Assembly (NCBI GenBank): GCA_017621055.1
Contig: JAGATX010000015.1
Location: 1 to 64,000 of the forward strand
DNA length: 64,000 nucleotides
Reading direction: 5' to 3'
Origin: Muribaculaceae bacterium
GTDB taxonomy: Bacteria; Bacteroidota; Bacteroidia; Bacteroidales; Muribaculaceae
Under the pieces are notes generated by a model that was not told the DNA's origin, did not search any database, and saw nothing but the letters and a program-made list of their open reading frames with translations. Positions 28,480 to 46,370 of this stretch are shown here, one piece after another. Positions within the stretch are counted from its first letter, which is position 1. Every line of letters starts with the position of its first letter. Both the position numbers and the translations under genes were made by a program.

Positions 28480-29145
28480 TCATCGACCGGTATAGTTGAA
28501 CGTATCGATACGTACACGTTGGCTGCGATGCGTTACGCGGGCGCGATAAGTGCTTACCTGTGAGCCGTTTTTAATGCGGACATTGACATTGCCGCCCTGG
28601 GGAGCGCGCATATCGGTGCTGTAATACACGATTTCCACGGTGTATTGCCCATGCAAAGGATTGGACCAGAACACATTCTCGACGGCCTCGTTCTGAGGAT
28701 GGCCACCCTCGCGGTTGTCAACGTCGAGTTCGCCGCCGGTGGCGGGGTCGGTGCGGTTGGCAAAGTAAATCTCGTTGCCGTTAGGCTCATAGACATGAAG
28801 ATCCACATCACCGGGGAAGCCCCACGCCATGGTAACGCGAATTTCGCCGTCATTGCCCTGGTCGGTGGGCACTTCGATAGGTTCAGGTTCGGGCTCAGGT
28901 TCGGGCTCAGGTTCGGGTTCCGGTTCCGGCTCAGGCTCCGGTTCCGGTTCGGGCTCAGGCTCCGGTTCGGGCTCGGGCTCCGGTGCCGGGTCATCGAATA
29001 TCTCGGCCGGCGGATATTCCTCCACGGGAGCGGGGGCTTCCGCCACACGCGGCGGCTCGCCGCAACTTGTGCATTTGCTCATCAGCAGGAGGGCCACAAG
29101 GAGGGCAAAAGCTCCCGCAAGTATTCCTTTGAGATGGTTGTTCAT
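28480..29145 (-). CDS. DUF2135/YfaP-like anchored periplasmic protein with long Glu-Pro linker (copy 3)
   Basis: The 221-residue product has an N-terminal membrane helix (about residues 8-23) directly followed by KCTSCG, then an acidic/proline linker with about 17 consecutive Glu-Pro pairs (about 55-89). A C-terminal DUF2135 domain follows (GDVDLHVYEPNGNEIYFANR, GGELDVDNREGG, ENVFWSNP, GQYTVEIVYYS). EP repeats form stiff extended rods, as in TonB. The lipobox-like cysteine has Lys at -1, so lipidation is unlikely. It is the last gene of the long operon; the stop of the upstream copy overlaps its ATG. Function unknown. Confidence 0.8.
   Translation of the reverse strand: MNNHLKGILAGAFALLVALLLMSKCTSCGEPPRVAEAPAPVEEYPPAEIFDDPAPEPEPEPEPEPEPEPEPEPEPEPEPEPEPEPEPEPIEVPTDQGNDGEIRVTMAWGFPGDVDLHVYEPNGNEIYFANRTDPATGGELDVDNREGGHPQNEAVENVFWSNPLHGQYTVEIVYYSTDMRAPQGGNVNVRIKNGSQVSTYRARVTHRSQRVRIDTFNYTGR
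28881..28986. repeat. Degenerate hexamer repeat coding for the Glu-Pro linker
   Basis: About 17 tandem 6-base units of the type GGTTCGGGCTCA/GGTTCC vary at the third codon positions. On the minus strand they read as alternating Pro and Glu codons. Such repeats can expand or contract by whole EP units without breaking the frame. Confidence 0.9.
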
Positions 29146-29723
29146 CGCTGTTGCGGGTTTGTCGGCGGGGCGTAGTCCACGGTTGCGACATCTACCTCCT
29201 CGCCCTGTTCGTCAAGATGAATATTGTAGCGGCTCTCCTCGCCGTTGACCTGGATGACAACAAGGACATCGCCTTCCTCAACGCCCTGACGCGTCGAGAA
29301 GTACTTCACGGCCACTCGATATCGGCCACTCGGCGGATTGTCCCAGAAAACATTCTCAACGGCAGGCTCGCCACGGCGGCCGCCTTCGAGATTATCCATA
29401 TCGAGCCAGCCGGTAGTGTCGGGATTGCGGCGGTTGGCGAAGTAAATATGGTTGCCGCCAGGCTCATAGACGTGCAGGTCTATATCGCCGGGAAATTCCC
29501 ATGCCAGAGTGACCTTCAGCACGCCGTTGCCGCCGTAATCGTTGGCATCGAACACCGAGTCCTCGGGTTCCGGCTCCGGTTGGGGCGCCACTACGTCGGT
29601 ATCCGGGGGCGTCACGTCCGCTATCTCGCGCGGATGCCCGCAGCTGTGGCACTTCGACAGCAGGAGAAGTGCTATCAGCAGGATGAATGCCCCCACAAGG
29701 AGGCCCTTGAGATGATTGTTCAT
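29142..29723 (-). CDS. DUF2135/YfaP-like anchored periplasmic protein with short linker (copy 2)
   Basis: This 193-residue paralogue of the genes on either side has an N-terminus nearly the same as copy 3 (MNNHLKG.L.GAF.LL.ALLL.SKC.SCG). A shorter Pro/Glu/Asp linker (PPDTDVVAPQPEPEPED) is followed by a DUF2135 domain (FPGDIDLHVYEPGGNHIYFANR, GWLDMDNLEGG, ENVFWDNPPSGRYRVAVKYFS). It overlaps both neighbours by ATGA junctions. The close N-terminal match to copy 3 indicates a recent duplication. Confidence 0.8.
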   Translation of the reverse strand: MNNHLKGLLVGAFILLIALLLLSKCHSCGHPREIADVTPPDTDVVAPQPEPEPEDSVFDANDYGGNGVLKVTLAWEFPGDIDLHVYEPGGNHIYFANRRNPDTTGWLDMDNLEGGRRGEPAVENVFWDNPPSGRYRVAVKYFSTRQGVEEGDVLVVIQVNGEESRYNIHLDEQGEEVDVATVDYAPPTNPQQR

Positions 29724-30238
29724 TGTTGTGGAGAGTTAGGCGCGGCGCCGCGGCGTCGCGGTGATGAATAATCGAATTGTGTAACTGTCTCTTCCTGGCT
29801 GTCCGTAGTGAGACGAACAGTGTATGGTGTCTCCTGTCCGTTGACCTTTACGGTGACGTGCACGTCGCCGCCGCGTGGCGATTCCTCGTCGATGCGGTAC
29901 ATCACCAGACGCACGGTGTATGTTCCTTCGGCAGGATTGCGCCAGAAAGCGTTCTCCTGCGAACCCGGACCGCCTATGCGGTTGTCGACATCGAGCTCGC
30001 CGCCGCCACTACGGCGCGAACTCGTCATGTTGGCGAAATAAATCTCCTCGCCGTCAGGCTGTATGACATGAAGATCCACATCGCCGTAGAAATCCCAGTC
30101 GATATGCACGCGGATATCGCCGTCCTGTCCGAGCTGCTCGCGTGGCTGAGGCAGCTCGAAGCTGCAGTGCGACAGCAGCAATAGGATTATCAACAGCACA
30201 AAAGCGCCGCCAAGACTTATGCCCAGACCCGTTCTCAT
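29720..30238 (-). CDS. DUF2135/YfaP-like anchored periplasmic protein without linker (copy 1)
   Basis: The 172-residue product has a membrane helix (about 8-24), a very short acidic spacer and a DUF2135 domain (YGDVDLHVIQPDGEEIYFANM, GGELDVDNRIGG, ENAFWRNPAEGTYTVRLVMY). It is the most divergent of the three paralogues and the first transcribed. Its start overlaps the last base of the DUF1294 gene. DUF2135 has no established activity; the GDVDLHV and LDVDN acidic motifs suggest metal or carbohydrate binding, but that is inference. Confidence 0.8.
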   Translation of the reverse strand: MRTGLGISLGGAFVLLIILLLLSHCSFELPQPREQLGQDGDIRVHIDWDFYGDVDLHVIQPDGEEIYFANMTSSRRSGGGELDVDNRIGGPGSQENAFWRNPAEGTYTVRLVMYRIDEESPRGGDVHVTVKVNGQETPYTVRLTTDSQEETVTQFDYSSPRRRGAAPNSPQQ

Positions 30239-30534
30239 CAGCGTGTCAGCGCAAAGGCCAGAGCCAGGATCTGCACGAACAGAAGTACCGGTATAGTGAT
30301 GTAAAAGGCCTTTTTGTTAGTCTTGTGGTTGAAAAACACCATACCGCTGAGGGCTCCGAAAGCGCCGAGGGCAGCAGCAGGGATAAAGAGCACCCACTCG
30401 GGGATGCGCCACTTGCCGTAGGTGGCAAGATGTTTGTCGTAAGCGAAAAGCACGAACGACAGCACGCACATCCAGTAGATTATTGGCATGAGCGGGTCGA
30501 AAAACAGTATATTTATATCGAAAGCGTAGTTCAT
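30238..30534 (-). CDS. DUF1294 family membrane protein
   Basis: The 98-residue product has about three or four membrane helices and the characteristic DUF1294 motifs FVLFAYDKHLATYGKWRIPE and LGAFGALSGMVFFNHKTNKKAFYI. The family is widespread and uncharacterised. Its position inside the SrfB/SrfC operon, with gaps of 10 and -1 bases, suggests recruitment as a small membrane component. Confidence 0.85.
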   Translation of the reverse strand: MNYAFDINILFFDPLMPIIYWMCVLSFVLFAYDKHLATYGKWRIPEWVLFIPAAALGAFGALSGMVFFNHKTNKKAFYITIPVLLFVQILALAFALTR

Positions 30535-30544: not shown

Positions 30545-32341
30545 TTAGAAGATACACGGAATACTTATAAGCACCGAGCGGAGGGCGAAATAGCCGGCAG
30601 TGAGTGCCACCAGACCGCCGGCAGCAAGTGCTATCTCGCCGGCGACATGCCACCAGGGCTGCGGGCCGGCAACCTCCACGAGTTCGTACTCTTTCTCGTC
30701 CTTTTCGAGCGGTACGGGAATATGCGGGAAAGGACGTGCCGACGAATAGAGGTCGACGGCCATCTCGCCCGGTGCCGTAAAGACGTCGCTGCCAACGGCA
30801 GTTTCGCCCTTGGCGTCCAGAACATCGGTTATTCGCACATTGCCCTTGGCCATTATGACCGTTACACCCGCTGCCGGCTGATTGTTGAGCAATTTGACGC
30901 GAACAAGGATATCGGCGAGGTTGGGTGTGCTCTCATAGGGCAATACGAAGATATACTCCTGCTGTTCGGCAACGAGGTCGAAAACGGTGTTGTTCTTCTC
31001 ATCATTACCGTCCCATACCTGCATCTTGTTGCCCGACAGGACGTTGAACGGCCCTACCATTCCGTTGGCATCCGTGAGGAACGCTCCGCGGCCGTTGCCG
31101 TCGCCAAGGTCCACCAGCACAGGATAGCCGGCCAACGGTTCCATCGACAGATTGACCACGCGCACCGTCGCGGTGAACGGTACTGCCGGAGGTGTGTCGA
31201 AAACGAAATCGAAGCGTACGATGCCGTCCACGGCGTTCTTTGTTTCTGAACGGCCGCGCACACCCGCTGCCACAGTGCCCTTGTCGGGTGTGAGGTCGTA
31301 CTCGTACACTGCCATGCCGGAGGCATCGGTAACAAGGTTTACATCCTGATTGCCAACCTTCATAGCCACCGACTCGCCGGCGATGGGAGCGCCGTCGCCA
31401 CCCACAAAAACTTCAACGCGAGTATGCGGTATGTGGGGCGTGCTGAAGTCGAAGTTAAAGTCGTTCACCGCCTCGCGCCTCAGCTCGCGCCTCTGATGCT
31501 CGCCGCGCAGCACAACGTCGCATTCCACACCCTCGAGCCAGGGCAGACTGCAGGTGGTGACTCCTTTGTCGAGCGCCAGCGGCAGCTGCCGGTGGCCGTA
31601 GTTCACCGTCACGGTCTCTGCGCCCACAGGCTCGCCGTCGTGACGCGCCGTGATGCGCACAACAACAAACTGAGTGACATCTACATCGATATGACCGGTG
31701 TTCTCGTCGACATCGACAATGCGTTCCACTCCCGTATCGAGGTCGCGGACGGCTATGTGGCTGCCCTGCGGCAACCGCCCGAAAGAGTATATGCCGTCGT
31801 CGCCTGTTTCCTGTTCCACCCATGCCGTGCCTTGAAGAAGACTGAACTTACGCCGCGGAACAGGCTTGCCGTCGATGGTGAACGACAGTGTTATCTCGTT
31901 GATTTTCTGCTGTACCGTCGTATCGATAATAGTGGCCGCGGAACCGCGTTTGTAGTTGGCGAAGCCCCATCCTGTGAGACGCAGTTCCAGCTCGCCGCCC
32001 TCGCGCCGCCGAACAAAGATGAAGTCATCGTTGGGGAAGCAGAACACCTGCTCGATGACGGCGGCACGCGGTCCGGCCTTGCGGAGGGCGCGGGAGCGCA
32101 GTTCCTCGATCATGGCACGCGCGCGCCGGGTGTCGTCGTCGTTCGCATTGGGCAGTTTCACCCAGCCGTCGGCGTCGCTGTCCGACCAGTAGTAGCTGCT
32201 GTGAGTGACATAGACGGGAGCGAAATATTGGGCATCGGCACCGAGATACTGCTTGATGCGCGTATTGGCGGCATCGCGCACGTTCCAGTTGCTCACTTGC
32301 CAGTGCACTTCCGAACTTGGTACTTCTTTAATCTTTGGCAT
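30545..32341 (-). CDS. C-terminally anchored protein with repeated Ig-like (carboxypeptidase-regulatory-like) domains
   Basis: The 598-residue product has no signal peptide. Residues about 1-135 form an unrecognised alpha/beta domain (VHWQVSNWNVRDAANTRIK...). About five Ig-like repeats follow, with recurring motifs such as DGKPVPRRKFSLL, GEPVGAETVTVNYG, GAPIAGESVAMKV..TDASGMAVYEYDL, MEPLAGYPVLVDL..TDANGMVGPF and NQPAAGVTVIMAKG. The only membrane helix is at about 570-592 (HVAGEIALAAGGLVALTAGYFAL), near the C-terminus. If inserted as a tail-anchored protein, its Ig array faces the cytoplasm, which is unusual. A scaffold role in the complex is inferred. Confidence 0.7.
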   Translation of the reverse strand: MPKIKEVPSSEVHWQVSNWNVRDAANTRIKQYLGADAQYFAPVYVTHSSYYWSDSDADGWVKLPNANDDDTRRARAMIEELRSRALRKAGPRAAVIEQVFCFPNDDFIFVRRREGGELELRLTGWGFANYKRGSAATIIDTTVQQKINEITLSFTIDGKPVPRRKFSLLQGTAWVEQETGDDGIYSFGRLPQGSHIAVRDLDTGVERIVDVDENTGHIDVDVTQFVVVRITARHDGEPVGAETVTVNYGHRQLPLALDKGVTTCSLPWLEGVECDVVLRGEHQRRELRREAVNDFNFDFSTPHIPHTRVEVFVGGDGAPIAGESVAMKVGNQDVNLVTDASGMAVYEYDLTPDKGTVAAGVRGRSETKNAVDGIVRFDFVFDTPPAVPFTATVRVVNLSMEPLAGYPVLVDLGDGNGRGAFLTDANGMVGPFNVLSGNKMQVWDGNDEKNNTVFDLVAEQQEYIFVLPYESTPNLADILVRVKLLNNQPAAGVTVIMAKGNVRITDVLDAKGETAVGSDVFTAPGEMAVDLYSSARPFPHIPVPLEKDEKEYELVEVAGPQPWWHVAGEIALAAGGLVALTAGYFALRSVLISIPCIF

Positions 32342-32371: not shown

Positions 32372-33301
32372 TCATTGGCGTGTTCGCAGCATTGCCGCGG
32401 CCGAATGGACGGCGGCAATAAGCTCGCCGTTGGCCAAAGGAGCCTCGATATTGGTTTCGAGGGCCACAAGGTCGGCATTAGCAATCGCCGACCTCATTTC
32501 CGGCGTGGTCAGACGACCGTCGGAAGGCAGCCGGTTGAGGAAATCGAGGAGCACACGGCGCTCTGCGGCGAGGTAACGGCGATAATCGGCATCCAGCCGC
32601 TCTACCAGAGCCTGACGCGCAAGCTTACGCGGTATCCACGTAATCCGCGCGAGGTCAGTGCATTCGCTGTATTGCGCCAGCAACTCACTTCGGCGTTCCT
32701 CCTGGCGCTGACGGTAAGGGCCATAGTCGCGGACCCTCAGGTTCCAGTCGAGACTGTATCCGGCGCCGGAGGGAACCATGCTTATTGTCACCTGCGTGGG
32801 CTGCACGAACGATGCGGCGCCGAAAGCCAAGGTGCCGTCGATGACGCTGCGGTCGCGCATAAGGCGCCGATACGCAGGCGTGTAGCCAATATTGGGGAAA
32901 TGCCGGACCAAGGTATCGAGACCGCGGTAATTATCTGCCACTTCCGCCACGGCGCCTACATGCTGAGGAGGGAAATCGCGGCCGAAAGCAAGACGGATGA
33001 GGCTGTCGAGCTTGAAAAGGATACCGTTGGCGAGGGTATCGGCAAGGGCGTGGGCACTTCCGTCGGTGAGCGTAACGCCGTGATGTGCCAGAGCGTTGCA
33101 GGCCTCGGCGAAGCGGCGGTCATCCCAGCCGTTGCGAAACCCCTGTATTGCAGTGCGTATGTCGCGACCCGCGTCAGAATAGAGAGGCACAACGTCCGGA
33201 CGGACGGTGACGCGCGGCGCCGGCGGGAACATCAGCAGCCAGGCACCGTAGACTACGGTGGCCAATACCACTACGAGAACGACTAACTTGAGAAATTTCA
33301 T
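32372..33301 (-). CDS. Membrane-anchored periplasmic protein of unknown function
   Basis: The 309-residue product has one N-terminal membrane helix (about 5-24, KLVVLVVVLATVVYGAWLLMF) followed by a largely helical, Arg-rich domain. I do not recognise the family. Segments such as YRQRQEERRSELLAQYSECTD and ALVERLDADYRRYLAAERRVLLDFLNRL look like long amphipathic helices. It lies 6 bases after the 671-residue protein gene, within the SrfB/SrfC operon. Confidence 0.65.
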   Translation of the reverse strand: MKFLKLVVLVVVLATVVYGAWLLMFPPAPRVTVRPDVVPLYSDAGRDIRTAIQGFRNGWDDRRFAEACNALAHHGVTLTDGSAHALADTLANGILFKLDSLIRLAFGRDFPPQHVGAVAEVADNYRGLDTLVRHFPNIGYTPAYRRLMRDRSVIDGTLAFGAASFVQPTQVTISMVPSGAGYSLDWNLRVRDYGPYRQRQEERRSELLAQYSECTDLARITWIPRKLARQALVERLDADYRRYLAAERRVLLDFLNRLPSDGRLTTPEMRSAIANADLVALETNIEAPLANGELIAAVHSAAAMLRTRQ

Positions 33302-33307: not shown

Positions 33308-35323
33308 TTATTTGCCGGGGGTCAGACCGGAGCCATTCTGATGGGGCGTGTTGCCATTTTCCTTATCGTCGGGGGTCGAAGTCGCTTCGGGTTGCTGGAC
33401 TGGCGCCTGTCCCGATATTCCTTGGTTCAGAGCGTTGGTAATCTCGGAAACCGGAACACTGCCGCTTGCAGGCGCCGGCGATACGGCCTCGGCGCCGTCG
33501 GGCGCAGCCTCAGGCTCCGGTTCGGACTGTGGTGTGGCGGCAACGGGGGCCGGAGCGGCCGGATGGGTTGCCGCCGGGGATGCGGGAGTGCCCTCCTCTG
33601 CCTCGTCGGAAACTATATCTTCGGTTTCGGGAGCCTCGGTCTCGGAACTATTGAAATATCCGGTAAAGAACGTGGTTATCGTACCGCCGAGAAGGGCGCC
33701 GGCAAGGAAAACCATGAAGAACAGCATGATAAATATGGCAACGCGTGCCATCCGCGAGCCTATGCCGCAGTAGTCGCTGTCGGAGAACCGGAAAAGCTCG
33801 GCCAGACGACTGAAAAAGCCCGTCTTCGTACCTGCCTTGTTCAGATCAGCCAGATAGAACGGCAGGTGGTCGGGTGTATCGTCGGCAGTACGGAGTGCCT
33901 GAGTGCGATATTTTGCCGGCGACCCCAGGCTGACTGTCACGGAGCCTTTGAGAATGCTTTCGAATTGTTTTTCGAAAATCATATTTCCGTCGCCTGGCTG
34001 GAAGCGGGCATTGACCACTGTCGAGGTCTCGTCGCCGTTGCCGACTGAACTGGTGACGAACAGCCAGTAATTGGTGCCCTTCAGGGCCGCGGGAAGGACA
34101 ACCCTGAGCACACACCCGGCGGCAGGTGCTTGATCAGCCGGCATGTGCTTGCGTTGCGGCTCTGCGACGACTATATCCATGACTTTAACAACGATACGAT
34201 CGCCGACAATACGCACTCCCATCAACTCGCAGCCACTGTCGCGGCTGAGCTGGAAATACTCCGTGATGGGGCGGCCGCCGATGGCGTCGAAATCCTTTAT
34301 TTTATCGCCTGAAACAGTAAAATCGCGTGTGACGGGTACAAAGTTGCCTTTGGCGTCGCGATAGCCCAGATTATCGAGCACCTTGTCGCGGGCAAGGTCG
34401 GTCTTCACGCCCTCTACGGTATAAGTAAATGTCTTACTGATTGGAACGGGAGCTATGTTTGCCGTGACCGTCGCCGTTGCTGCATTCATATCGAACGATA
34501 TCCATGGCAGTTCAGGCAGTCCCTCGCCGGTATAGTATGCTTTGATGATATCGGCATATGCCAGCCGGAAACTTTCCTCGTGATAGCACTCGGGATCGTA
34601 GCCGAGGGCCTTGGTGGAGATAAGCACGGCATCGTCGCTCATCTCGTTGGTGAAATCATTCTTGTCGCACACCACATGAATACGCATCGGAGGACGGGCG
34701 TCCATGTCTTCGGCCGTGAAGGTGAACAGGCGGTCGGTGCCGTTGAAATGTCCGAAAGCGAGCTGCGACACCATGGCGAGCCGGTCGGACGGCATCAGCG
34801 GCAGATGCATCATATAATTCGGGATATCTGCATCGGCACACTCCACGAAATAAGGGCTGTTCAGTCCCTGCATCACTGCTGAACCGCCCCACATGGCCTT
34901 GAGGGTCAGTTCCGACACCACCCGCTGCATCTGCTCCACAGGGAAAACCGGGCGTGCCTGACCCGGACGAAAGCGCCACATGGCACCCTCGCGGACAATA
35001 ACATCACCCTCTACGGTGGCGGCTATGGCGTCGAGTATGTACTTGGGACTGACAGGGCGGCATCCCTGTTGCAAGATTAGAGCGCCTGTAGGCACCTGAA
35101 TGCTGTATTTGAGCGCGTTAATCCGGCCGTCGCCCGGATTGAAACGGCAGAGCACACGCTCGTACACAGAGTATTCGGGGCCGAGAGTGGCGCTGTAGTA
35201 TACCTCCCCGGCAACACGGCTCAAATAACTGCCGTCCTGCGGAGGTGTGCCCTCCCACCCTATGAGTACAAAGTTCTGAAAGCCGGGTTTACGGCCTGAG
35301 ATTGCGATACCTATGTTTGCCAT
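33308..35323 (-). CDS. Single-pass protein with large cytoplasmic domain, possibly GTPase-associated (GAP1-like)
   Basis: The 671-residue product begins directly with a folded domain (MANIGIAISGRKPGFQNFVLIGWEG..LSRVAGEVYYSATLGPEYSVYERVLCRFNPG), with no signal peptide. Residues to about 530 are predicted cytoplasmic. One membrane helix follows (about 532-562, VAIFIMLFFMVFLAGALLGG), then a Pro/Ala/Glu-rich periplasmic tail of roughly 110 residues. The N-terminal domain loosely recalls the GTPase-associated protein 1 families described next to TRAFAC-type GTPases, and the next upstream gene encodes such a GTPase 3 bases away. That resemblance is my inference and needs a profile search. Confidence 0.6.
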   Translation of the reverse strand: MANIGIAISGRKPGFQNFVLIGWEGTPPQDGSYLSRVAGEVYYSATLGPEYSVYERVLCRFNPGDGRINALKYSIQVPTGALILQQGCRPVSPKYILDAIAATVEGDVIVREGAMWRFRPGQARPVFPVEQMQRVVSELTLKAMWGGSAVMQGLNSPYFVECADADIPNYMMHLPLMPSDRLAMVSQLAFGHFNGTDRLFTFTAEDMDARPPMRIHVVCDKNDFTNEMSDDAVLISTKALGYDPECYHEESFRLAYADIIKAYYTGEGLPELPWISFDMNAATATVTANIAPVPISKTFTYTVEGVKTDLARDKVLDNLGYRDAKGNFVPVTRDFTVSGDKIKDFDAIGGRPITEYFQLSRDSGCELMGVRIVGDRIVVKVMDIVVAEPQRKHMPADQAPAAGCVLRVVLPAALKGTNYWLFVTSSVGNGDETSTVVNARFQPGDGNMIFEKQFESILKGSVTVSLGSPAKYRTQALRTADDTPDHLPFYLADLNKAGTKTGFFSRLAELFRFSDSDYCGIGSRMARVAIFIMLFFMVFLAGALLGGTITTFFTGYFNSSETEAPETEDIVSDEAEEGTPASPAATHPAAPAPVAATPQSEPEPEAAPDGAEAVSPAPASGSVPVSEITNALNQGISGQAPVQQPEATSTPDDKENGNTPHQNGSGLTPGK

Positions 35324-37305: not shown

Positions 37306-38292
37306 TCAGAGCTTAACACCATGAGCGCTGCTCAGCCGACGTCGATTGTCGCGAGCATTGACCTTGGTGGAGTACGAGAAGATAAAAAGGAAAAAATACA
37401 AAAACACAATCAGGCCGTAGAGAACTATGCCCTGCCAGCTGATGACAAAAATCTTGTCGTAGGCGGCGGCAAACGTAACGGGAGTGACCGCATAGTCGCG
37501 CGGACTGTCGTTATATGCCGAATATGCCGAGCCGCCGCGGGTGGCTATCAGCGGCAGCTGCATGGAGTGGCTCTGGCGAGTGAGAGTGGAGGCGAGTTCG
37601 CCGGCGAAAGGCTCCAGTCCCGTGCGCAGATGGCGGAATGCCGCCGGCGACAGGCCCGCGGCATCGGCCTGATAGACGGCGAGTGTGGCTGCGTAGCCGT
37701 CGTTCCAGCTTATGCTTCCTATCTGCAGAGCGTCGATCATCGCATCATGACGGGCGGAGAACGACGCAAGAGTCTGCTCGCCAACGGTGCCGGGCTGCTG
37801 CGACAGATAATCACGCAGATAAGCCGTCAAGGCGGCGTCGGCCTCGCTTGTGCCTGAATTGGAGAAATTGCGTAGCCCGCTGAGCGTGCGCGAGGCACGT
37901 TCGTGCTCATAGCTCCGGAAAGTGCTCCACATCGTAGCCACCGAATCCACATCGGCTATGGCCGCGTTGCCTATGGCACGAGCGCAAAGCACATAGTTTA
38001 CCGTATAAATGGCGGGTACGGCCACATAGGCCACGACAGCGAAAGCACCGATAAGACTCACAATCCTTACGGTAAGCCAGTTGCGCATATCCGCAACACT
38101 TGTTTTGGATCGCACGAGGAAGAACATCGATACCGCTCCTATCAGCGCTGCCAAAGCCGTGCTGACTATAACCAGCAAGGGTGCACAGCCCGCCAGAGTC
38201 AGACCCACATAGCAGCAACCCATTATCAGCAGCCACCCTACGATGGTGATAATCAGTCCTAAAGATATGAATTTGCCACTTTTATGTTGCAT
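37306..38292 (-). CDS. Four-helix membrane protein with periplasmic domain
   Basis: The 328-residue product has three N-terminal membrane helices (about 9-29, 33-58 and 72-96), then a soluble helical domain of about 185 residues (SYEHERASRTLSGLRNFS...AFRHLRTGLEPFAGELASTL). A last helix lies at about 283-306 (IFVISWQGIVLYGLIVFLYFFLFIF), followed by a basic cytoplasmic tail. I do not recognise the family. Position in the operon and topology suggest a membrane platform for the neighbouring GTPase. Confidence 0.65.
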   Translation of the reverse strand: MQHKSGKFISLGLIITIVGWLLIMGCCYVGLTLAGCAPLLVIVSTALAALIGAVSMFFLVRSKTSVADMRNWLTVRIVSLIGAFAVVAYVAVPAIYTVNYVLCARAIGNAAIADVDSVATMWSTFRSYEHERASRTLSGLRNFSNSGTSEADAALTAYLRDYLSQQPGTVGEQTLASFSARHDAMIDALQIGSISWNDGYAATLAVYQADAAGLSPAAFRHLRTGLEPFAGELASTLTRQSHSMQLPLIATRGGSAYSAYNDSPRDYAVTPVTFAAAYDKIFVISWQGIVLYGLIVFLYFFLFIFSYSTKVNARDNRRRLSSAHGVKL

Positions 38293-38313: not shown

Positions 38314-40185
38314 TTATGAATTAGCCTTGATAAAGAATGGAGTTCCGTGATGAAACCAGTCGGCGTCGACCCCCGAGACGAGCGCTTTGCCGGCATCGTC
38401 GGCACTCAGCGTTATGCGGGCGGCTCCGAACGACATTTCACCATCGCCGGCAGCAGCCGACACTGTCAGAACTATATCGTTGCCATTGGCAGCGGCGGTA
38501 TATGCGGCATCGACAGGCGTCAGGTTCTCGCGGTTTGAGCTGTACAGCAGACGGCCTCTATTGGCCGACGTGGGCTCCAGCTCGACAGTAACAATGGGCG
38601 GCAGCGCCGTGCTGTCGGCTATATCGAGGTACCCGAGCATACAGAACTTATAGCGGTCGCCGCTGCCGCGCGTTATGCTGTTTTTCACCGCCGCGAAGTC
38701 CGATACGGTGTTGTACACGGCCTCTACTGCCGGTCCCGTCTGCACGATCGGCCCTATGGTTGTGCTGCCGGTGACCGGCAGACCCGTATTCTTGAGTATG
38801 GATATTATCTCTTCGGTATTGAGGGTGGGATCCACACTTTTCATCAGCCCTACCGTGCCGGCGACGATGGGCGACGAGAAACTTGTGCCGTCGACCAGCA
38901 TATAACCTTCCGTGCCGGGAACGATGCCGGGGACCTGGACTCCGGGCGCCGAAACAGTGCTCTCATATATCTGACGGTCAGCGAAATTACCGAAATTGCT
39001 GAAATCGGCCTTGTGCATAGTGGCGTCGACCGACGATACCTTGATGATATTGTCGCCGCGTTTTGAGGCATCGAGTGCCGTGAACACATCCTCGTTGCCC
39101 GCCGCCCATACAAGGGTGACATAATTCCGCTGGGCCATATCATATACATAGTGCCACACGTTCTCCTGAGCCAGCAACTCAGTGCCGGCGGCAGCTATCT
39201 GCTGCTCCACGGGCCAGCCCGCGACCTCCTCGGTGAAAGCCAGGCCGGCCGATATGTTGATAACCTGCGCACGCTTGTTTATGGCGTAGAGAATGCCCTG
39301 CAGCATTGCCAGGCAACCGAAGCGGTGGCCCAGACTTACGGGCATGAAACGGCAACGCGGTGCCACACCGGCGCTGGAGCGCCCATTGCCGGTGGCGCCG
39401 AGAGCCATGCCGGCCACCATGCTGCCGTGGGCATAGACAGGATTGGGCCGCTGCGCGTTATAGTCCGACGGCAGGCTCACGTCGCTGTTGCCGTTGGCCA
39501 CAGAGTAAGGCTCTACAATCTCTGTCGAGGCAAATTCCACATTCTCGAGGTCGAAATAGCTGTCGACGACGGCAACGGTGACATCGTTCGAACCCATGGT
39601 TATGTTCCATGCGTCCGGTATCTTCATCATATCGAAATAATATGCATGCCCGGCATTGCGGAATACCGGATCATTGGGCGTTTCGCCCGTTTCCATCACG
39701 CTCTCGTCGAAGACCATGAACGGTATGTCCGGGATTTGCCCGGGCAGCGCTTCCATAATCTCCACTCGGCGCTCCGCCGGGACCTCTATCGACATCAGCT
39801 TGGTGTTGGGGTCGTAGAACAGAATGCGGTATTCGTCGCCGGGATAAAGCTCGTGAAAACGGTTGCACCACTGCTCGTACTCGGCCTGACCGGTCTCCGA
39901 ATCGAAAAGTACATTCAGCCGGTTGGCGACGACCTGCCGGCCGCCCTCGTCGATGATATCCTCATCGTTGATGGGGGGTATCACCTCGCTGACGGGGCGG
40001 TCGGGCAGCGTTGCGTCCACGCTGTCGTCCGTACATTGACGGAACTGACTAAGCAGGAACAGGAAAATCGCCAGCAGAACCATGAAAAGGATACTGCGCC
40101 ACAGGCATCCTCCGCAACCCCACGGCTGCCAGAAAAAGTAATGCCATTTGACAGGTCCTTTCGAATCGAAATGTACTCGCTTCAT
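38314..40185 (-). CDS. Membrane-anchored subtilisin-like serine protease (S8 family)
   Basis: The 623-residue product has a short basic cytoplasmic N-terminus, one membrane helix (about 29-47), a propeptide-like region (about 75-150) and a subtilase domain. The triad is intact: Asp near 208 in VAVVDSYFD, His near 253 in YAHGSMVAGMA, Ser near 435 in DGTSFSSPIVAG. The oxyanion Asn is in VWAAGNED. A beta-rich C-terminal region of about 120 residues follows. The ATG at 40185 begins the protein; longer in-frame sequence overlaps the SrfC-like gene. N-in topology puts the protease in the periplasm. It is probably the effector or processing arm of the system (inference). Confidence 0.85.
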   Translation of the reverse strand: MKRVHFDSKGPVKWHYFFWQPWGCGGCLWRSILFMVLLAIFLFLLSQFRQCTDDSVDATLPDRPVSEVIPPINDEDIIDEGGRQVVANRLNVLFDSETGQAEYEQWCNRFHELYPGDEYRILFYDPNTKLMSIEVPAERRVEIMEALPGQIPDIPFMVFDESVMETGETPNDPVFRNAGHAYYFDMMKIPDAWNITMGSNDVTVAVVDSYFDLENVEFASTEIVEPYSVANGNSDVSLPSDYNAQRPNPVYAHGSMVAGMALGATGNGRSSAGVAPRCRFMPVSLGHRFGCLAMLQGILYAINKRAQVINISAGLAFTEEVAGWPVEQQIAAAGTELLAQENVWHYVYDMAQRNYVTLVWAAGNEDVFTALDASKRGDNIIKVSSVDATMHKADFSNFGNFADRQIYESTVSAPGVQVPGIVPGTEGYMLVDGTSFSSPIVAGTVGLMKSVDPTLNTEEIISILKNTGLPVTGSTTIGPIVQTGPAVEAVYNTVSDFAAVKNSITRGSGDRYKFCMLGYLDIADSTALPPIVTVELEPTSANRGRLLYSSNRENLTPVDAAYTAAANGNDIVLTVSAAAGDGEMSFGAARITLSADDAGKALVSGVDADWFHHGTPFFIKANS

Positions 40186-40225: not shown

Positions 40226-43162
40226 TCAGCAGCTCGCTTTGAGGCTCTCGAGCAGTTCGCCCAGAGCGTGGTTGGCTTCCGGGCTGAGATCCGACCGCTT
40301 GATGTGCACCACATAAGCGATGGTCATATACTCTTTCCATTCGTTGTAATGGCGATCGAAAGAGTCGGTGAGCGAGCCTCCGCCCTCAAGCATACGGCCG
40401 AAGAGTTCCTCGAGTTCGTCGTGGCTGTAGGTGCTCCGGCGTTCCCGGTTCATGTAGTCGAAAGCGGGCAGGTCGTTTTCCTTGATTACCAGGCGTGCCT
40501 TGCTCTTGAGTTCGTCGCTGAGCATGGAGTAGCCGAAATCATTGACAAAGGTATTGATTATCGACGACATCATGTCGGCCACCAGACTCTCCTTCATCTG
40601 CGCCAGGTTGGCGATGGTTACTTCCGAGGTTATCTTATCGGCTATATAGTCGGCCAGATGCACACGCTCGGCGCATTCTATCAGCGTGTTGACCATATCC
40701 TTCATCAGCACGGGGTCCACGCCGTCGTCGCCGGAGAAGGTGTTGACAATCTCCTCGGAATGCAGTTTCGCGCGCCACAACTCCATGATATGGTCAGCGA
40801 TGAAGACCTGGTTGGTCTTGGGCCGCAGTTTGTCGCTGAACAGAAGCTCGGTGTTGATGTTCCGGCGTGCCATGGCCTGCTCGGCCATGGCGCGTGTGCG
40901 CCAGTGGTAAGCCTTCATGAGACGTTCCCATTTCTCGTCGATGGAGCGGCAGTCCTCGAAGTCGTTGCACGAGCGGCGGATGATCTGGTATTCGCGGAAA
41001 TTGTTGATTGTTTCGTTGAGGTCGGTGCCGTTCACGAGTTTATGTACCACCCCGAGGCATTCCACCTCCGTAACCTGCAGTGCCTGGAGAAGGTGCCCGA
41101 AGAAGTAGTTGTCGGCATCGCACGCAAGGTCGAGTTCCCATCGCAGGTTCATGGCGTTGTCGATGTTGCGGAGCAGTTTTTCAGCCTCGTTGTCACTGTC
41201 GTATTCTGCGGCGAGGATATCGCGCACCTTGCCCATTATGCGGCGGCGTTCACGCGTCATCTGCTCGTCGCGTATCGCTGCCGCCGCGCGCGACACCTTG
41301 TTCATGCGGTCGATGATATACAGCGAACCGTCGTTGTTCACCGTGGCGGCGACGTCCCACGCGAGTTCGGGGTCGAAGAAAAGCTCGCGGACACTCGAAT
41401 TGGAGATGAACGTGCGCCGCAGAAGACGATAGAAATCCTCGCTCATCTTCAGCCCTTTCTCGGGCGACGACGTGGCAACGTCGTAGCCTTCGAACATGCC
41501 GTTGCCCTGTGCCGTGCAAGCGCTGAAGGCATAGGACCGGAGAAGATAGGTATCCTTGAACGAGTGACCGGAAGCGTCCCAGTTGCGGAACCAGTCAACA
41601 TTCGTCCAGTTGAGCACGGCGTCGAGAAGAACGGTGCGGAAGCGGTCCTCCCAGCGGTTGTTCACCGCCGGCTCTTCGTTGTGGCTTCGAAGGTCCTTCT
41701 CTGTCATGTCGATGTTTATCTTGGTGGCCACAAGCATCAGCGGCGAGATGCCGCCGGTGCGGCGCAGCGTTTCGGCGCGTTCGGCGGCGTCGGCGCCGAC
41801 GTTGCGGCGCACCCACTGGTCCAGAAGGATGTGCAGGTTCTTCACCTCGCTCTGTTTGTGGTGGTGGCAGAACATGAGCACCTTCATCATGTGGCTCTCG
41901 CTGTAGTGATTGAACAGATATGCTATCTTTCCGCGCAGGAAAAGCTTTACCAATACGCTCTGGCCGCTCTTGTCGCGTTCGCCCTCGCGGCAGTTCGCTT
42001 CATCCTGCTGTTCGGGTGAGCGTGCGCCGGGGAAATCGAGCAGATCAGTATCGTTCATCAGCGATTTATCCACCGTTGGCGTGAGCTTGCGCCAGGCCGC
42101 CGAAGGCAACCAGCCGGGCCGGCCGTCGTTGGCGCCGTCATAGCTGTAACTAAGCTTCTCGTCGATGTACTCGGGGTCGATTTTGAAAATGACCTCGGCG
42201 GAAATGGCGCACAAGTCGCACGTGGCGTAGCCGGTCACCTCGCGCAGCTCGCGGGGCGACGGCGACGGAACATAGACCGACGTCTTTATCGGCCATTCGG
42301 CATCGTCGAGGCCGTTGAGACATGCCACCGACATGATTGTGCGCTTGTTTTCGCCACCGTGCATCACCGTCTCGAGGGGCACATAGACCTCAGCGGCAAA
42401 ATCGAGCGCGGAGAGGTCGCCGACAAGACGCTCGAACAGGCGCGATATTGCGGCATTCTCGTGCCAAAGGTATTTGAGCACCGTCACCCATTCTGCAGGT
42501 GGCACGCGCCGTATCACCCTTGCAAGCGTTTCGAAGAGTTTGCTGCGCCGCATACCTTGTGTGGGCGACGGCAGATAGCTCTCCAGGTAGCTCTTTACAT
42601 CGAGAATATCGTCCTCGGTGAGATATGCATGTGCATTCTCCTCACGCGTGGCATAACTGTGGTATATTCTCTCGGCGATTTCGCGCAGTTCCTCATCGGA
42701 GTACTGGCCATAGTCTCGGATATTGGAATAGTATCCGGCAACGAGAATGGAAACCAGCTGACCCGGACGCAGCAGCTTGACAATCACCGGATAGTCCTTG
42801 TTGTATCGTTCGGGGTTGCGGCTGAAACTTGTCAGGCGCGTCACCACGCCGGTGGCTTCGCGGTCATCGCCGATGGGATTTATCTGGTCCACGAAGCCCA
42901 CGCCCTCGGGATATTTGCTCGATTTTATCCTGAAGGGTTTGTCTGTGCGGTTCAGGAGGGTGTTTATCTGATAGCTCTTGCCGGTCTGGCTCTCGCCGAA
43001 GGCCCCGATTGCCGGGTTTTCGTCCATTGCCATCTTCTGGCGCAGCAGCCGGCGCCGTCCCTGCACGAACTCTATGAAATTGTTCTCGTACTGGTCGGGC
43101 TTGTTGGCCTTGAGCCATGCCAGACCGTCGTTGAGAAGTTTGATATCGTCGTTTATTGTCAT
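40226..43162 (-). CDS. SrfC-like P-loop protein (putative virulence factor family)
   Basis: The 978-residue cytoplasmic protein resembles SrfC of the Salmonella/Xenorhabdus srfABC operons. The P-loop is FGESQTGKSYQI (residues 55-66, lysine 62). A DxxG-like switch occurs as LLDFPGARSPEQQ (about residue 377), and LVATKIN (about 479) fits a TKxD-like base-recognition site with Asn in place of Asp. The C-terminal half is helical, as in dynamin-like or large GTPases. The N-terminal helix and P-loop spacing match the family. It follows srfB by 40 bases, the same order as in srfABC. Confidence 0.85.
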   Translation of the reverse strand: MTINDDIKLLNDGLAWLKANKPDQYENNFIEFVQGRRRLLRQKMAMDENPAIGAFGESQTGKSYQINTLLNRTDKPFRIKSSKYPEGVGFVDQINPIGDDREATGVVTRLTSFSRNPERYNKDYPVIVKLLRPGQLVSILVAGYYSNIRDYGQYSDEELREIAERIYHSYATREENAHAYLTEDDILDVKSYLESYLPSPTQGMRRSKLFETLARVIRRVPPAEWVTVLKYLWHENAAISRLFERLVGDLSALDFAAEVYVPLETVMHGGENKRTIMSVACLNGLDDAEWPIKTSVYVPSPSPRELREVTGYATCDLCAISAEVIFKIDPEYIDEKLSYSYDGANDGRPGWLPSAAWRKLTPTVDKSLMNDTDLLDFPGARSPEQQDEANCREGERDKSGQSVLVKLFLRGKIAYLFNHYSESHMMKVLMFCHHHKQSEVKNLHILLDQWVRRNVGADAAERAETLRRTGGISPLMLVATKINIDMTEKDLRSHNEEPAVNNRWEDRFRTVLLDAVLNWTNVDWFRNWDASGHSFKDTYLLRSYAFSACTAQGNGMFEGYDVATSSPEKGLKMSEDFYRLLRRTFISNSSVRELFFDPELAWDVAATVNNDGSLYIIDRMNKVSRAAAAIRDEQMTRERRRIMGKVRDILAAEYDSDNEAEKLLRNIDNAMNLRWELDLACDADNYFFGHLLQALQVTEVECLGVVHKLVNGTDLNETINNFREYQIIRRSCNDFEDCRSIDEKWERLMKAYHWRTRAMAEQAMARRNINTELLFSDKLRPKTNQVFIADHIMELWRAKLHSEEIVNTFSGDDGVDPVLMKDMVNTLIECAERVHLADYIADKITSEVTIANLAQMKESLVADMMSSIINTFVNDFGYSMLSDELKSKARLVIKENDLPAFDYMNRERRSTYSHDELEELFGRMLEGGGSLTDSFDRHYNEWKEYMTIAYVVHIKRSDLSPEANHALGELLESLKASC

Positions 43163-43202: not shown

Positions 43203-46200
43203 TCAGCGGCTCTCTACGCTGAGTTCGAATTCGCCTTTGTCGAGCCAGTGCTGGCCATCGTTGATTATGGACTGACCGATGAACTCAACGGCGTCGAGAG
43301 GCACGGCGTCGCCGTTGCTGTCGACGATATCCTCAACAAACAGCTGCTCGGGATCGCTCTGGAAGTCGCGGCTGAGGGTGAGGCTGAGGGTGCGCCGACC
43401 GCTGTTGTTGTAGAGGGCATAGATGGGGCGCCCGTCGTAGTGCGGCTGGTCGAACTGCTTGGTGCCGAAGAACGCCGGGAACACAGACAGTGTGATGTTC
43501 TCGCTGTTGTGGCCCGGTGTGAGCAGCGTGGTGCTCATGCGGTCGCCCTGATAGAGGTTGATATAGTTTGCCGTGCTGCCGAAATGGCGGAGCATATCGT
43601 CGAATTTCACCGTCATGCCGTTGAAGCTCTCGGTGGAGGCCAGATAGCCGACCATGGCGCCGACGGCAACCACGGCCTTCTGATCGCGGAAATAGCCTTC
43701 GGGGTCGGCAAGGGGATACCACTGACCCACGCGGTACTGATTTAGGCGCACAAGGCGGTCGGGTGTTACAGGCACATACTTGACAAACAGCTCGGTGATG
43801 GCGTCGATCGATGTGGGGCGGCCTGCAAGGACGATGATGTCGCAGTGATGTGCGTAGAGCACAACCGATATCTGCTGCATGAGGCGTTCCATGGTTGATT
43901 TCACCATGTCTGCCACTCGTTTGGGCTCGTAGCGCCATTTGAGGTCTTCGAACCGGAAACCGAAATGGTCGGCGAAATAATCCAGCAGATACGTCGAGGG
44001 CTTAAGACCCGAGAATATCTCGCCGTAGGTATATACCTTCGACGGGCGGTTGAGGCGCAGCTGCTCCATGAAGAACTGTGCCATGGGGTGCGAGATCTGA
44101 GTATTGAAATCCACGCGGCAACGGCGGTCCTTGTCGTCCATCATAGTGCTGTCCACGCCGAAGAAATTGCGTATCAGACCCGATGCGAGGCGCTGTTTCA
44201 GCTGTTTGAGCTCGGCCGGATTGCCCTCGGCCGACCGCAGGTCGCTGACGGCGCCGCGATAGTAGCTGTGACGGCTCATCACGGGTATTTCCGCTATTTC
44301 GTCGGTGCTCATCAGCATCAGCCGGTTTGTCAGCGCCGAGAATATGCTGCCCATTTCGGGGTCGTCGCTGTTATGGTCCTGAATGATGATATTCTGGATG
44401 ATATTGCGCAGTATATCGTCGCCGGCCACATAGAAACTGTCCCAGAACAGCGGGCGTGGCGTCAGGGTGCCTGCATCGTTGCCCGAGCACATGTAGGAGC
44501 ATACCATCACGTCGGTGGTGCCGGCGCCGATATCCACCGACGCTACTGTGATGGCCTTGTCGGTATATCCTTCAGCGGCAAGTTCGGGACGCACATGCCC
44601 CTTGAGGTCGAAAAACTCGCGGGCGCGTCCCTTGTATCGCTCGGCAATCTCGGCGTAAAGATACACGAGCTGGCAACAGGTGGCCTCGTCGTAGGTCCAT
44701 GTGCCCTTACTGATGTCGTAATCGGCATCATCGGGCTTTACTGACAGTTTTTCCACGCTGGGATATACATTTATCTGCGGCAGGCTGTCGGCCGGATATA
44801 TCTGGGAAAGAGCCTCGAAGGCATCGGCAGCGCACTGGCGCAGTTTAATCTGCTCGGCCTTGGGCATTGCCGTGGGGCACGTCAGGATGAGGTTCCGGAG
44901 CACACGTTTGCAGTTGATGTCGCCGTGTTTGCGGAATTCCGGCGAATTTATCTGCATCAATGCCTGTTGAAGCACTTCCACCATGACGAACGTCATCAGC
45001 GACGCACGCGAGTAGTGGGTGTGTCCGTCGGTGGCTTCCAGACAGTTGAAAGGATCGCGGATATATTCGCCGCGGGCGTCGAAGAGGTCGGAAAGTCCGG
45101 GAACATAGATGTTTTCGGCCTCACGGATGTACAGCGGGTCGTTCTCCGTGGTGAGGAACTGCCATTTCTGCTTGAACAGACGGTTATCCCACAGGTATCG
45201 CTTGGGGCTGGAATAGTTGGTGGTGCTTGTCCACAGGTCATCGCTCTCCACCGAGCGGTATACGAGTTTCTTGGCTTCTTCGCCCACACGCACCATCGAC
45301 GGATAGCGGAACATATCCTCATCCTCGATAACGATATCGTTGGCGAAATCAGCCTGGCGGAACACCAGCCGCATGTCGAAGGGCTGTTCGTAAGTCTCCG
45401 CCGGATCGGTAAGGTCGCGCAGAGTCAGCATGGTAACCTTTGTGAAGTCACCGTTTTCGAACAGCAGTCCGCAGGTGCGCGAGTTGCCGATATCGAGCAC
45501 GAAATCTACGGGGATCTCGCGGTCCTTTGGGCAACGGTGGAGTGTGACCTCCGGAGCGGCGCCGCACAGGCGGATGTAGTTTATCAGATAGATGTACCAG
45601 CCGATGTAGCGATAGGAATTATTCAGGGGATCGAGGCCCAGCAGTTCGGCGATATAGTGGCTGAATACCGTAAATTCGCCAGTGGGTGCCATGAAAGTCA
45701 GCAGCGACGATACCTTGTTGCTCACGGCGAACTCCATGCGGTCGATGCCCTCGACGGGGAACGACGGGCGGTGCATGGCCATGTCGTCGGTACTGATGCC
45801 GGTGTCGAAGGCCCATGTAAAGCGGTAGCGGTCCTTGCCGGGCTCGCTGCCCTGCCCTATGCGGTCGATGCGCAGACGGCACCACGAATAAGGCACATCG
45901 CCGCTGACACCGTGCTGCATCTCGAACATGGGCATGGGCAGCCATTTGCCCAGCACGAGTTCGAAAGCCGGCACACGCTCGTGGACATTCGACGGATTAG
46001 GCGTCTTGAAAGCCGACGGTGAGTTGAAGGTATATACTTTTTCGTTGTCGCCGGCATCGAGCTGAGTAAAGAGCGTGGCGGCGACATCGCGGCGCATGAT
46101 CTCCACACCGCCCTCGTCGAGACGGGCACGGCCGTCGGCAAGATACTCTATCGACCGCGAAGTCAGTATCTCGTTGACGGGTATATACTTGCCAACGGTG

Positions 46201-46370
46201 GTATTGTATGTCAACAGGTCGAACAGTCGTTCGCCCGTCATTTCGTTCTTTATGTTGCAGAAACTGTAGCGCAGCGGGCGGCCGCCGGGCAGCACAAGCT
46301 GCTGTTCGGGGTCGAGCTCAAGCTCTACGGTGTGGAACTGGATGCCGCTGTCGGCAATGAGGTGTAACAT
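43203..46370 (-). CDS. SrfB-like actin/Hsp70-fold ATPase
   Basis: The 1055-residue protein resembles the SrfB family. After an N-terminal region of about 285 residues come the actin-like ATPase motifs: phosphate-1 DFVLDIGNSRTCGLLFENG (about 290), phosphate-2 VASVDIGAGTTDVMVCSY (about 612) and an adenosine-like motif DIIVLAGRPTSIDAI (about 845). I chose the ATG at 46370 (MLHLIADSG), which lies 25 bases after the rlmB-like stop; a TTG 39 bases upstream would overlap that gene. It probably works with the adjacent SrfC-like protein; whether it polymerises or acts as a chaperone is unknown. Confidence 0.85.
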   Translation of the reverse strand: MLHLIADSGIQFHTVELELDPEQQLVLPGGRPLRYSFCNIKNEMTGERLFDLLTYNTTVGKYIPVNEILTSRSIEYLADGRARLDEGGVEIMRRDVAATLFTQLDAGDNEKVYTFNSPSAFKTPNPSNVHERVPAFELVLGKWLPMPMFEMQHGVSGDVPYSWCRLRIDRIGQGSEPGKDRYRFTWAFDTGISTDDMAMHRPSFPVEGIDRMEFAVSNKVSSLLTFMAPTGEFTVFSHYIAELLGLDPLNNSYRYIGWYIYLINYIRLCGAAPEVTLHRCPKDREIPVDFVLDIGNSRTCGLLFENGDFTKVTMLTLRDLTDPAETYEQPFDMRLVFRQADFANDIVIEDEDMFRYPSMVRVGEEAKKLVYRSVESDDLWTSTTNYSSPKRYLWDNRLFKQKWQFLTTENDPLYIREAENIYVPGLSDLFDARGEYIRDPFNCLEATDGHTHYSRASLMTFVMVEVLQQALMQINSPEFRKHGDINCKRVLRNLILTCPTAMPKAEQIKLRQCAADAFEALSQIYPADSLPQINVYPSVEKLSVKPDDADYDISKGTWTYDEATCCQLVYLYAEIAERYKGRAREFFDLKGHVRPELAAEGYTDKAITVASVDIGAGTTDVMVCSYMCSGNDAGTLTPRPLFWDSFYVAGDDILRNIIQNIIIQDHNSDDPEMGSIFSALTNRLMLMSTDEIAEIPVMSRHSYYRGAVSDLRSAEGNPAELKQLKQRLASGLIRNFFGVDSTMMDDKDRRCRVDFNTQISHPMAQFFMEQLRLNRPSKVYTYGEIFSGLKPSTYLLDYFADHFGFRFEDLKWRYEPKRVADMVKSTMERLMQQISVVLYAHHCDIIVLAGRPTSIDAITELFVKYVPVTPDRLVRLNQYRVGQWYPLADPEGYFRDQKAVVAVGAMVGYLASTESFNGMTVKFDDMLRHFGSTANYINLYQGDRMSTTLLTPGHNSENITLSVFPAFFGTKQFDQPHYDGRPIYALYNNSGRRTLSLTLSRDFQSDPEQLFVEDIVDSNGDAVPLDAVEFIGQSIINDGQHWLDKGEFELSVESR

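What the first reader, a model, noticed from the sequence alone, without database searches (positions are those of the whole stretch)
28480..46370. An 18-kb SrfB/SrfC-centred operon with two P-loop NTPases, an actin-like ATPase, a periplasmic subtilase and tandem DUF2135 proteins
Twelve co-oriented, tightly packed genes encode three soluble NTPases (SrfB-like, SrfC-like, AGE-type GTPase) and eight or nine membrane-attached proteins, several reaching into the periplasm. SrfB and SrfC are known from enterobacterial srfABC, and AGE-motif GTPases are known from bacterial conflict systems. I know of no described system that combines both with an S8 protease, cytoplasmic Ig arrays and YfaP-like domains; SrfA is absent. 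My model, an inference: a membrane-spanning machine in which cytoplasmic NTP turnover controls a periplasmic protease or binding arm, for envelope stress, interbacterial defence or secretion.
Basis: partly seen in the sequence, partly recalled or inferred. Interest (0 to 1): 0.93.

Follow-up and report, generated by a model that had tools for sequence, protein, structure and literature searches.

The report
SrfABC-type envelope protease machine operon
A twelve-gene bacterial operon encodes three energy-using switch proteins inside the cell and a tethered protein-cutting enzyme predicted to lie outside the inner membrane; the same core set recurs in fixed order in many gut and environmental bacteria and seems to be an expanded relative of the poorly understood SrfABC genes.

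Summary
Twelve tightly packed minus-strand genes (46370/46409-28480) encode SrfB, SrfC, a DO-GTPase-like protein, an anchored S8 subtilase and eight further membrane proteins. The core is conserved: of 78 scored SrfB loci, 43 hold SrfB-SrfC-S8-M4-GTPase-TM6 in that order and 20 more the first five, mostly in Bacteroidota. Two corrections: a SrfA-type domain is present (N-terminus of the Ig-array protein, homologous to that of Rahnella SrfA and fused to S8 or the D9 domain in relatives); 'DUF2135' is below Pfam's cut-off. The protease slot is swappable: two loci carry a papain-type protease instead of S8, and an alphaproteobacterial locus a SrfA-N/trypsin protein. Best reading: an inner-membrane, NTPase-gated SrfABC-type machine controlling periplasmic proteolysis for envelope or surface physiology. 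Defence is a live rival, but upstream flanks show few known defence genes. Function untested.

The parts
43203..46409 (-). SrfB: actin/Hsp70-like ATPase (first ATG 46370; TTG 46409 overlaps rlmB)
   Evidence: PF07520 4.1e-157; phosphate-motif patterns in 86 and 99 of 100 homologues; no TM
40226..43162 (-). SrfC: large P-loop GTPase-like protein (Virul_Fac)
   Evidence: PF10139 1.3e-96; patterns for P-loop, G3 and G4 match 72, 84 and 55 of 89 homologues (narrow patterns); no TM
38314..40185 (-). S8 subtilase, N-terminal TM, predicted periplasmic; the region before the catalytic domain looks like a propeptide (inference)
   Evidence: PF00082 2.6e-31; His and Ser motif patterns in 82 and 77 of 85 homologues, narrow Asp and Asn patterns in 47 and 55 of 85; start and anchor
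37306..38292 (-). M4: multi-pass membrane protein, no Pfam family
   Evidence: three TM segments over threshold; no family; M4 profile hit in 66 of 78 scored loci
35327..37300 (-). GTP5: divergent DO-GTPase-like GTPase with long N-terminal extension
   Evidence: no Pfam hit for the window protein itself; of 16 aligned homologues 4 hit DO-GTPase2 and 2 DO-GTPase1; hhalign with five DO-GTPases 95.1%, 3.3e-8
33308..35323 (-). TM6: large N-terminal part, one TM, low-complexity tail; no known family
   Evidence: profile hit in 45 of 78 scored loci
32372..33301 (-). p7: N-terminally anchored protein of unknown family
   Evidence: TM 6-24; p7 profile hits downstream of TM6 in other loci
30545..32341 (-). 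SrfA-type protein: SrfA-N domain (about residues 1-135), Ig/MG4-like array, C-terminal TM
30238..30534 (-). DUF1294 membrane protein, 98 aa
   Evidence: ORF; PF06961 2e-18
29720..30238 (-). D9a: TM plus DUF2135/P-domain-like domain (sub-threshold)
29142..29723 (-). D9b: paralogue of D9a
   Evidence: DUF2135 0.008, below cut-off
28480..29145 (-). D9c: paralogue with Pro-Glu repeat spacer

Best explanation
The operon encodes an inner-membrane machine of the SrfABC kind, enlarged with proteolysis. In the cytoplasm SrfB (ATPase), SrfC (GTPase) and a DO-GTPase-like switch form an NTP-dependent assembly that contacts the membrane through the SrfA-N domain and TM6. In and across the membrane, M4, p7, DUF1294 and D9 proteins hold and aim a tethered subtilase, which cuts envelope or surface proteins when the NTPases switch. 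The output is most likely remodelling or surveillance of the cell envelope or surface. Shown: gene content, order, domain homologies, domain fusions, protease swaps, predicted anchors. Inferred: complex formation, gating, substrate and purpose.
For: Fixed order: 43 of 78 scored loci with all six core genes, 20 more with the first five; no scored locus broke the order. Removing 8 loci whose SrfB matches that of a locus used to build the profiles leaves 35 and 20 of 70. Pairwise distances of core proteins covary (Spearman 0.60-0.94, 61 loci, no baseline). The SrfA-N domain was found in 102 proteins (100 distinct) of the 2141 searched and in 0 of the 126 control proteins; 42 of the 102 also hit S8, 9 of those D9 as well. 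The protease slot is refilled: of 69 loci with SrfB, SrfC and GTP5, 66 have S8, two a papain-type protease with an N-terminal hydrophobic anchor (L117 3.1e-15, L118 1.6e-15), one none (L134). Methylobacterium has SrfA-N proteins with a trypsin-like domain (9.4e-20) and with D9 beside SrfB-SrfC. The charge around the S8 anchor puts its catalytic domain outside (5 K/R, 1 D/E before; 1 K/R, 4 D/E after). Published phenotypes of distant operons: deletion of Salmonella srfABC affects only swarming (PMC4219756, passages); silencing srfB in a jumbo-phage host is listed among knock-downs, mostly of LPS genes, that raise phage resistance while keeping swimming above 50% (PMC11797060, passage); both point to the surface.
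Against: Protease is not universal: 9 of the 18 other Bacteroidota loci L036-L053 show an S8 hit in the DNA fetched (some contigs short), the Rahnella SrfABC locus lists no protease neighbour, and L134 has none at the slot. Two S8 homologues (L080, L095) lack both the His and Ser motifs. The window's own subtilase showed no SrfA-N hit. Charges around the D9 anchors are not informative. No structure could be predicted. The phenotypes come from distant SrfABC operons.
Confidence: 0.5

Rival explanations
1. A GTPase-thresholded conflict (immunity) system of the kind proposed by Kaur et al. 2020: NTPases set a threshold, the membrane protease and beta-domain proteins are the effectors against phage or competitors.
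For: GTP5 is a divergent relative of DO-GTPases. Kaur et al. describe DO-GTPases combined with HSP70, FNIII repeats, peptidases and TM components (PMC7159879, passages). Patchy presence: 13 of 119 genomes of the family, own included, and 0 of the 7 other genus members listed. On a Runella plasmid the operon lies next to a BREX system.
Against: No GAP1 homology found for TM6. At 1e-15 only one PADLOC family, with 2 members, among 140 upstream flank proteins from 64 loci; 112 control proteins matched 52 families (each by one member in the 25 shown; the number of distinct proteins is not told). Silencing srfB raised, not lowered, phage resistance (PMC11797060).
Confidence: 0.27
2. A secretion or surface-display apparatus, with the subtilase as a mycosin-like maturation protease of exported substrates.
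For: S8 scores 9.9e-23 against the T7SS mycosin model, though far below its cut-off (80.8 versus 278.75 bits); multi-protein inner-membrane set; in host-associated Deltaproteobacteria srf genes lie near T6SS-control genes ppkA/tagQRST and a Hap-like gene (PMC3608642, passages).
Against: No secretin, usher, channel or export ATPase of a known secretion system is among the Pfam and NCBIfam hits of the proteins scanned; the subtilase anchor is N-terminal, whereas that of mycosins is C-terminal (recalled).
Confidence: 0.1
3. A toxin complex that acts on host cells, as claimed for Xenorhabdus SrfABC.
For: Cytotoxicity reported for Xenorhabdus SrfABC (PMC6950479, abstract and passages).
Against: Relatives occur in Runella (freshwater record), Flavobacterium and Niastella, which are not known as animal pathogens in general (recalled); SrfB, SrfC and GTP5 carry no TM segment and look like cytosolic NTPases; the other members are membrane-anchored.
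Confidence: 0.05

Closest known systems
SrfABC operon (Salmonella, Xenorhabdus, Rahnella; PF07520, PF10139)
   Same: SrfB and SrfC adjacent and in the same order; a protein with the SrfA-N domain is encoded in the operon
   Different: Here SrfA-N sits on an Ig-array protein with a C-terminal TM and lies downstream; further genes including an S8 protease and a DO-GTPase-like GTPase are added; SrfA's own C-terminal part was not searched for
DO-GTPase/GAP1 systems (Kaur et al. 2020, PMC7159879)
   Same: Related GTPase with SGE/AGE Walker B variant; Hsp70/actin-fold partner, beta-sandwich repeats, TM proteins and peptidases as general grammar
   Different: No GAP1 found; SrfB/SrfC and S8 core; the held text does not mention SrfA, SrfB or SrfC
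YfaP / DUF2135 proteins
   Same: Weak profile match of the D9 domain (best 9.4e-4)
   Different: Below Pfam's cut-off, and the P-domain (PF01483) scores about equally (7.4e-4)

Membership tests
SrfABC operon | SrfB (PF07520) above cut-off | tested here: met
   525.4 bits versus 27.1
SrfABC operon | SrfC (PF10139) above cut-off, directly after SrfB | tested here: met
   325.2 bits versus 28.1; adjacent; SrfB-SrfC adjacent in 75 of 76 scored loci holding both
SrfABC operon | a SrfA protein | tested here: inconclusive
   SrfA-N domain present by iterative HMM (3.3e-5 to Rahnella SrfA at the second round, set of 2141 proteins) and hhalign (62%, 7.4e-5; reversed control 1.1%; Rahnella SrfA alone 7.8%); full-length SrfA not tested
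DO-GTPase/GAP1 conflict system | TRAFAC GTPase of the DO-GTPase family | tested here: inconclusive
   divergent relative: window protein has no Pfam hit; 4 of 16 homologues DO-GTPase2, best 5.6e-8; three operon genes counted over the cut-off in 50 genomes (L090, L093, L131); hhalign 95.1%
DO-GTPase/GAP1 conflict system | GAP1 protein | tested here: not met
   no GAP1 match among 15 TM6 homologues at E up to 5; hhalign to one GAP1-N1 and one GAP1-N2 protein (confirmed by Pfam) below 1%; no multi-sequence GAP1 profile could be made
known anti-phage defence system | match to PADLOC models | tested here: not met
   9 of the 12 proteins scanned: only the generic subtilase model, 9e-9
known anti-phage defence system | neighbourhood rich in defence genes | tested here: not met
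   upstream side only, at 1e-15; exception Runella BREX; downstream flanks not scanned
DUF2135/YfaP | PF09906 over cut-off | tested here: not met
   16.7 bits versus 22 for D9b; no DUF2135 hit listed for D9a and D9c
SrfABC-type machine with protease | protease activity dependent on SrfB/SrfC/GTPase | not testable with these tools
   needs biochemistry

The most novel reading that the evidence does not exclude
SrfABC is the stripped-down form of a widespread, undescribed class of transmembrane machine in which cytoplasmic ATPase and GTPase switches, through a dedicated SrfA-N adaptor domain, operate interchangeable periplasmic effectors (subtilase, papain-type, trypsin-type protease or beta-sandwich): a bacterial inside-out signalling protease.
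Probability: 0.4. Interest if true: 0.86.

Novelty: new variant of a known kind. Interest (0 to 1): 0.66.

Why it matters
SrfABC has been called a virulence factor or toxin for years without a mechanism. Showing that its SrfA-N domain is a module joined to proteases of different classes, and that a fixed SrfB-SrfC-protease-GTPase operon is spread through Bacteroidota, gives a concrete and testable mechanism for a family named only by association, and cultured hosts not known as pathogens in which to test it.

Tried and rejected
GAP1 identity of TM6: suggested by position after a DO-GTPase-like gene and by a loosely similar N-terminal pattern; not supported at sequence level (the two GAP1 proteins used were confirmed later). 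GAP1-N2 searches of 198 genomes of the class of G849 (0 hits) and 295 of the window's order (1 hit) did not give enough sequences for a profile.

Defence-island reading: looked strong from the Runella BREX neighbour but not from 140 upstream flank proteins (2 hits of one family at 1e-15). The control (112 proteins, 52 families) shows that the library does ring on other genes of these genomes, but how many distinct control proteins matched is not told, so I claim no statistic. Control regions: one fixed stretch per genome, 31 obtained of 40 asked, proteins taken from 28.

Spread to Betaproteobacteria and Clostridia: rejected. L103 ('Limnohabitans') has 30% GC, unlike that genus (recalled), so probably misbinned; L132 ('Clostridiales') resembles the Prevotella contig L134 in genes and GC.

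Empty-site test: in all 13 genus-mates where both were found, rlmB and lon lie on different contigs (fragmented assemblies), so no simple insertion between them can be shown. Relatives L056 and L058 share the upstream genes of the window up to rlmB; L057 shares them only up to porD.

Structure prediction and fold search: not available. Solved structures: none for SrfB or TM6; for SrfC designed helical proteins (best 7.2e-7) and for GTP5 matches no better than 0.13.

Papers: searches were read as listings; abstract and passages of PMC7159879; abstract and passages of PMC6950479; passages of PMC4219756, PMC3608642 and PMC11797060; PMC8195603 searched, no occurrence. None read whole. The library is open-licence PMC only.

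Rows dropped: L081 from the order count (SrfB ORF called on the wrong strand), leaving 78 of 79. One further SrfB locus of the order sample (G187) was not fetched.
Full report
WHAT IS THERE. The window is a Bacteroidales-type chromosome stretch (T9SS PorD gene at 48853-49773; genome G000). Between rlmB (46396-47151) and lon (25946-28372) lie twelve minus-strand genes: SrfB, SrfC, S8 subtilase, M4, GTP5, TM6, p7, an Ig-array protein, a DUF1294 protein and three D9 paralogues. Domain calls are from Pfam; rlmB, lon and the other flank names are my reading of the translations. GC content of the operon (57.5%) is close to that of its flanks (58.7 and 58.3%), so it does not look recently acquired. 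The subtilase probably starts at 40185.

IS IT CONSERVED. PF07520 occurs in 13 of 119 genomes of the window's family, in 0 of the 7 other genus members listed, in 18 of 295 in the order and 2 of 395 in the phylum sample, own genome included in each. Around 79 named loci found with a SrfB profile I called ORFs and searched them with profiles built from the window genes and relatives. Of 78 scored loci, 43 hold all six core genes in order, 20 the first five, 3 lack S8 but keep M4 and GTP5, 3 lack an M4 call, and 9 stop after the first one to three genes; no scored locus broke the order; median gaps are 14 to 25.5 bases. Without 8 loci that equal profile seeds, the numbers are 35 and 20 of 70. 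Longer downstream stretches from 40 genomes show that many Bacteroidales loci, such as L163-L166, continue TM6-p7-coiled coil-SrfA-N/Ig-DUF1294-D9; the window shares this except for the coiled-coil genes. Core proteins covary in distance; part of this is shared ancestry of the hosts, for which I had no baseline.

LIMITS OF THE COUNT. The 79 loci are the best-scoring of 568, so they favour this subtype. In the order and phylum samples, 9 of the 18 loci L036-L053 show an S8 hit in the DNA at hand, so SrfB loci without S8 are common too. Two named non-Bacteroidota loci are probably binning errors (L103, L132); three others (L112, L115, L116) bear names of Fibrobacterota-type organisms (phylum recalled).

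THE SrfA DOMAIN. Starting from the first 125-135 residues of seven Ig-array proteins, iterative hmmsearch over 2141 proteins found the Rhizobium SrfA-like protein at once (2.1e-5), Rahnella SrfA at the second round (3.3e-5, residues 52-142), and in later rounds more S8, D9 and Methylobacterium proteins, the trypsin fusion only at the fourth (2.3e-4). Profile alignment of the two sets is colinear over nearly the whole domain (62%, 7.4e-5), against 1.1% for reversed sequences; Rahnella SrfA alone gives only 7.8%, so the link is good but not overwhelming. Of the 102 hits (100 distinct) none is among 126 control proteins, and, leaving aside the four plasmid loci, all but two lie within three genes of a core gene; one of the two is on the continuation of a system contig (L055), the other 11 genes away. 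The D9 profile directly hits the C-terminal parts of the Methylobacterium (2.8e-12) and Rhizobium (1.1e-7) SrfA-like proteins. The statement that SrfA is absent is thus wrong for its N-terminal domain.

THE PROTEASE. His and Ser motif patterns match 82 and 77 of 85 homologues; my narrower Asp and Asn patterns match 47 and 55; L080 and L095 lack both His and Ser motifs. In 42 of the 102 SrfA-N proteins the same ORF also matches S8, in 9 of these also D9. In L117 and L118 the S8 gene is replaced by a papain-type protease with an N-terminal hydrophobic stretch (3.1e-15 and 1.6e-15). In Methylobacterium a SrfA-N protein carries a trypsin-like domain (9.4e-20) beside SrfB and SrfC. Refilling one slot with unrelated proteases is the strongest argument that proteolysis is the purpose of that slot; L134, with a SrfA-N/D9 protein and no protease there, is a counter-example.

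THE GTPase. The window protein itself hits nothing in Pfam, but of 16 aligned homologues 4 hit DO-GTPase2 and 2 DO-GTPase1; a search of 50 genomes put three operon genes over the curated cut-off, one of them only with its neighbouring pieces (L090, L093, L131); alignment with five DO-GTPases of other loci gives 95.1% over the P-loop to G3 region. The GAP1 partner that defines those systems was not found; the two GAP1 proteins used for comparison are real by Pfam.

HOW IT MAY WORK. Hydropathy puts S8, p7 and D9 behind N-terminal anchors, the SrfA-N/Ig protein before a C-terminal one, and TM6 around one near residue 537; SrfB, SrfC and GTP5 have none. Charge favours an outside S8 domain; for D9 and p7 it is not informative. 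The model is an NTP-gated inner-membrane complex with an external protease. Complex formation, gating and substrate are inferred. Published hints come from distant SrfABC operons: swarming (PMC4219756), phage resistance on silencing of srfB (PMC11797060), neighbourhood with T6SS-control genes and a Hap-like gene (PMC3608642), cytotoxicity claims (PMC6950479). The first two point to the cell surface; I weight envelope physiology above defence.

DEFENCE TEST. Upstream flank proteins (140 from 64 loci) gave one PADLOC family with two members at 1e-15; 112 control proteins gave 52 families, among them UvrD-helicase-type matches. The number of distinct control proteins is not told, so this shows only that the flanks are not rich in known defence genes. 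One Runella plasmid has the operon 1.3 kb after a BREX system; its GTPase-like gene matches DO-GTPase1 only weakly (0.0057). Downstream flanks were not scanned.

On recheck I corrected the wording on control counts, charge, upstream gene sharing of L057 and the DO-GTPase membership row (now 'inconclusive'), and added.

VERDICT. A real, conserved and, in the library searched, undescribed operon type; filed as a new variant of SrfABC rather than a new kind, because SrfB, SrfC and a SrfA-N domain are there and the purpose remains unproven.

Noticed in passing
L135 (Runella sp. SP2 plasmid) 1-35159: SrfB-SrfC-S8 and further operon genes follow, after 1.3 kb, a BREX system (BrxB-domain protein, brxC, methylase, PglZ, BrxL).
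   Followed up: partly
L117:6112-9654 and L118:2965-6437: Upstream of SrfB: two trypsin-like proteases around a sigma-factor-like and an anti-sigma-like gene (Trypsin_2, Sigma70_r4_2 and zf-HC2 hits among the 19 proteins).
   Followed up: partly
L211 (G841:C96) 98-13108: A genome that also has a SrfB operon carries a separate DO-GTPase/GAP1-N2 system: HSP70-vWA-like protein, FNIII-like protein, three DO-GTPases, GAP1-N2 (1.1e-9).
   Followed up: partly
L036, L038, L039, L043, L044: A 325-340 aa protein of unknown family lies between SrfB and SrfC in other Bacteroidota SrfB loci.
   Followed up: no
L037:11674-13278: Papain-type protease gene (1.9e-17) on the opposite strand about 4 kb from a SrfB gene without SrfC in the stretch; 41% identical to the L117 protease.
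   Followed up: no
window 28480-29145: D9c has a long Pro-Glu repeat between its anchor and its domain, absent from D9a.
   Followed up: no
window 46-130 and 233-317: Two tandem tRNA-Leu(gag) genes with equal scores.
   Followed up: no
L103 and L132: Probable binning errors in public MAGs: a 30% GC contig labelled Limnohabitans; a Clostridiales contig resembling a Prevotella one.
   Followed up: partly
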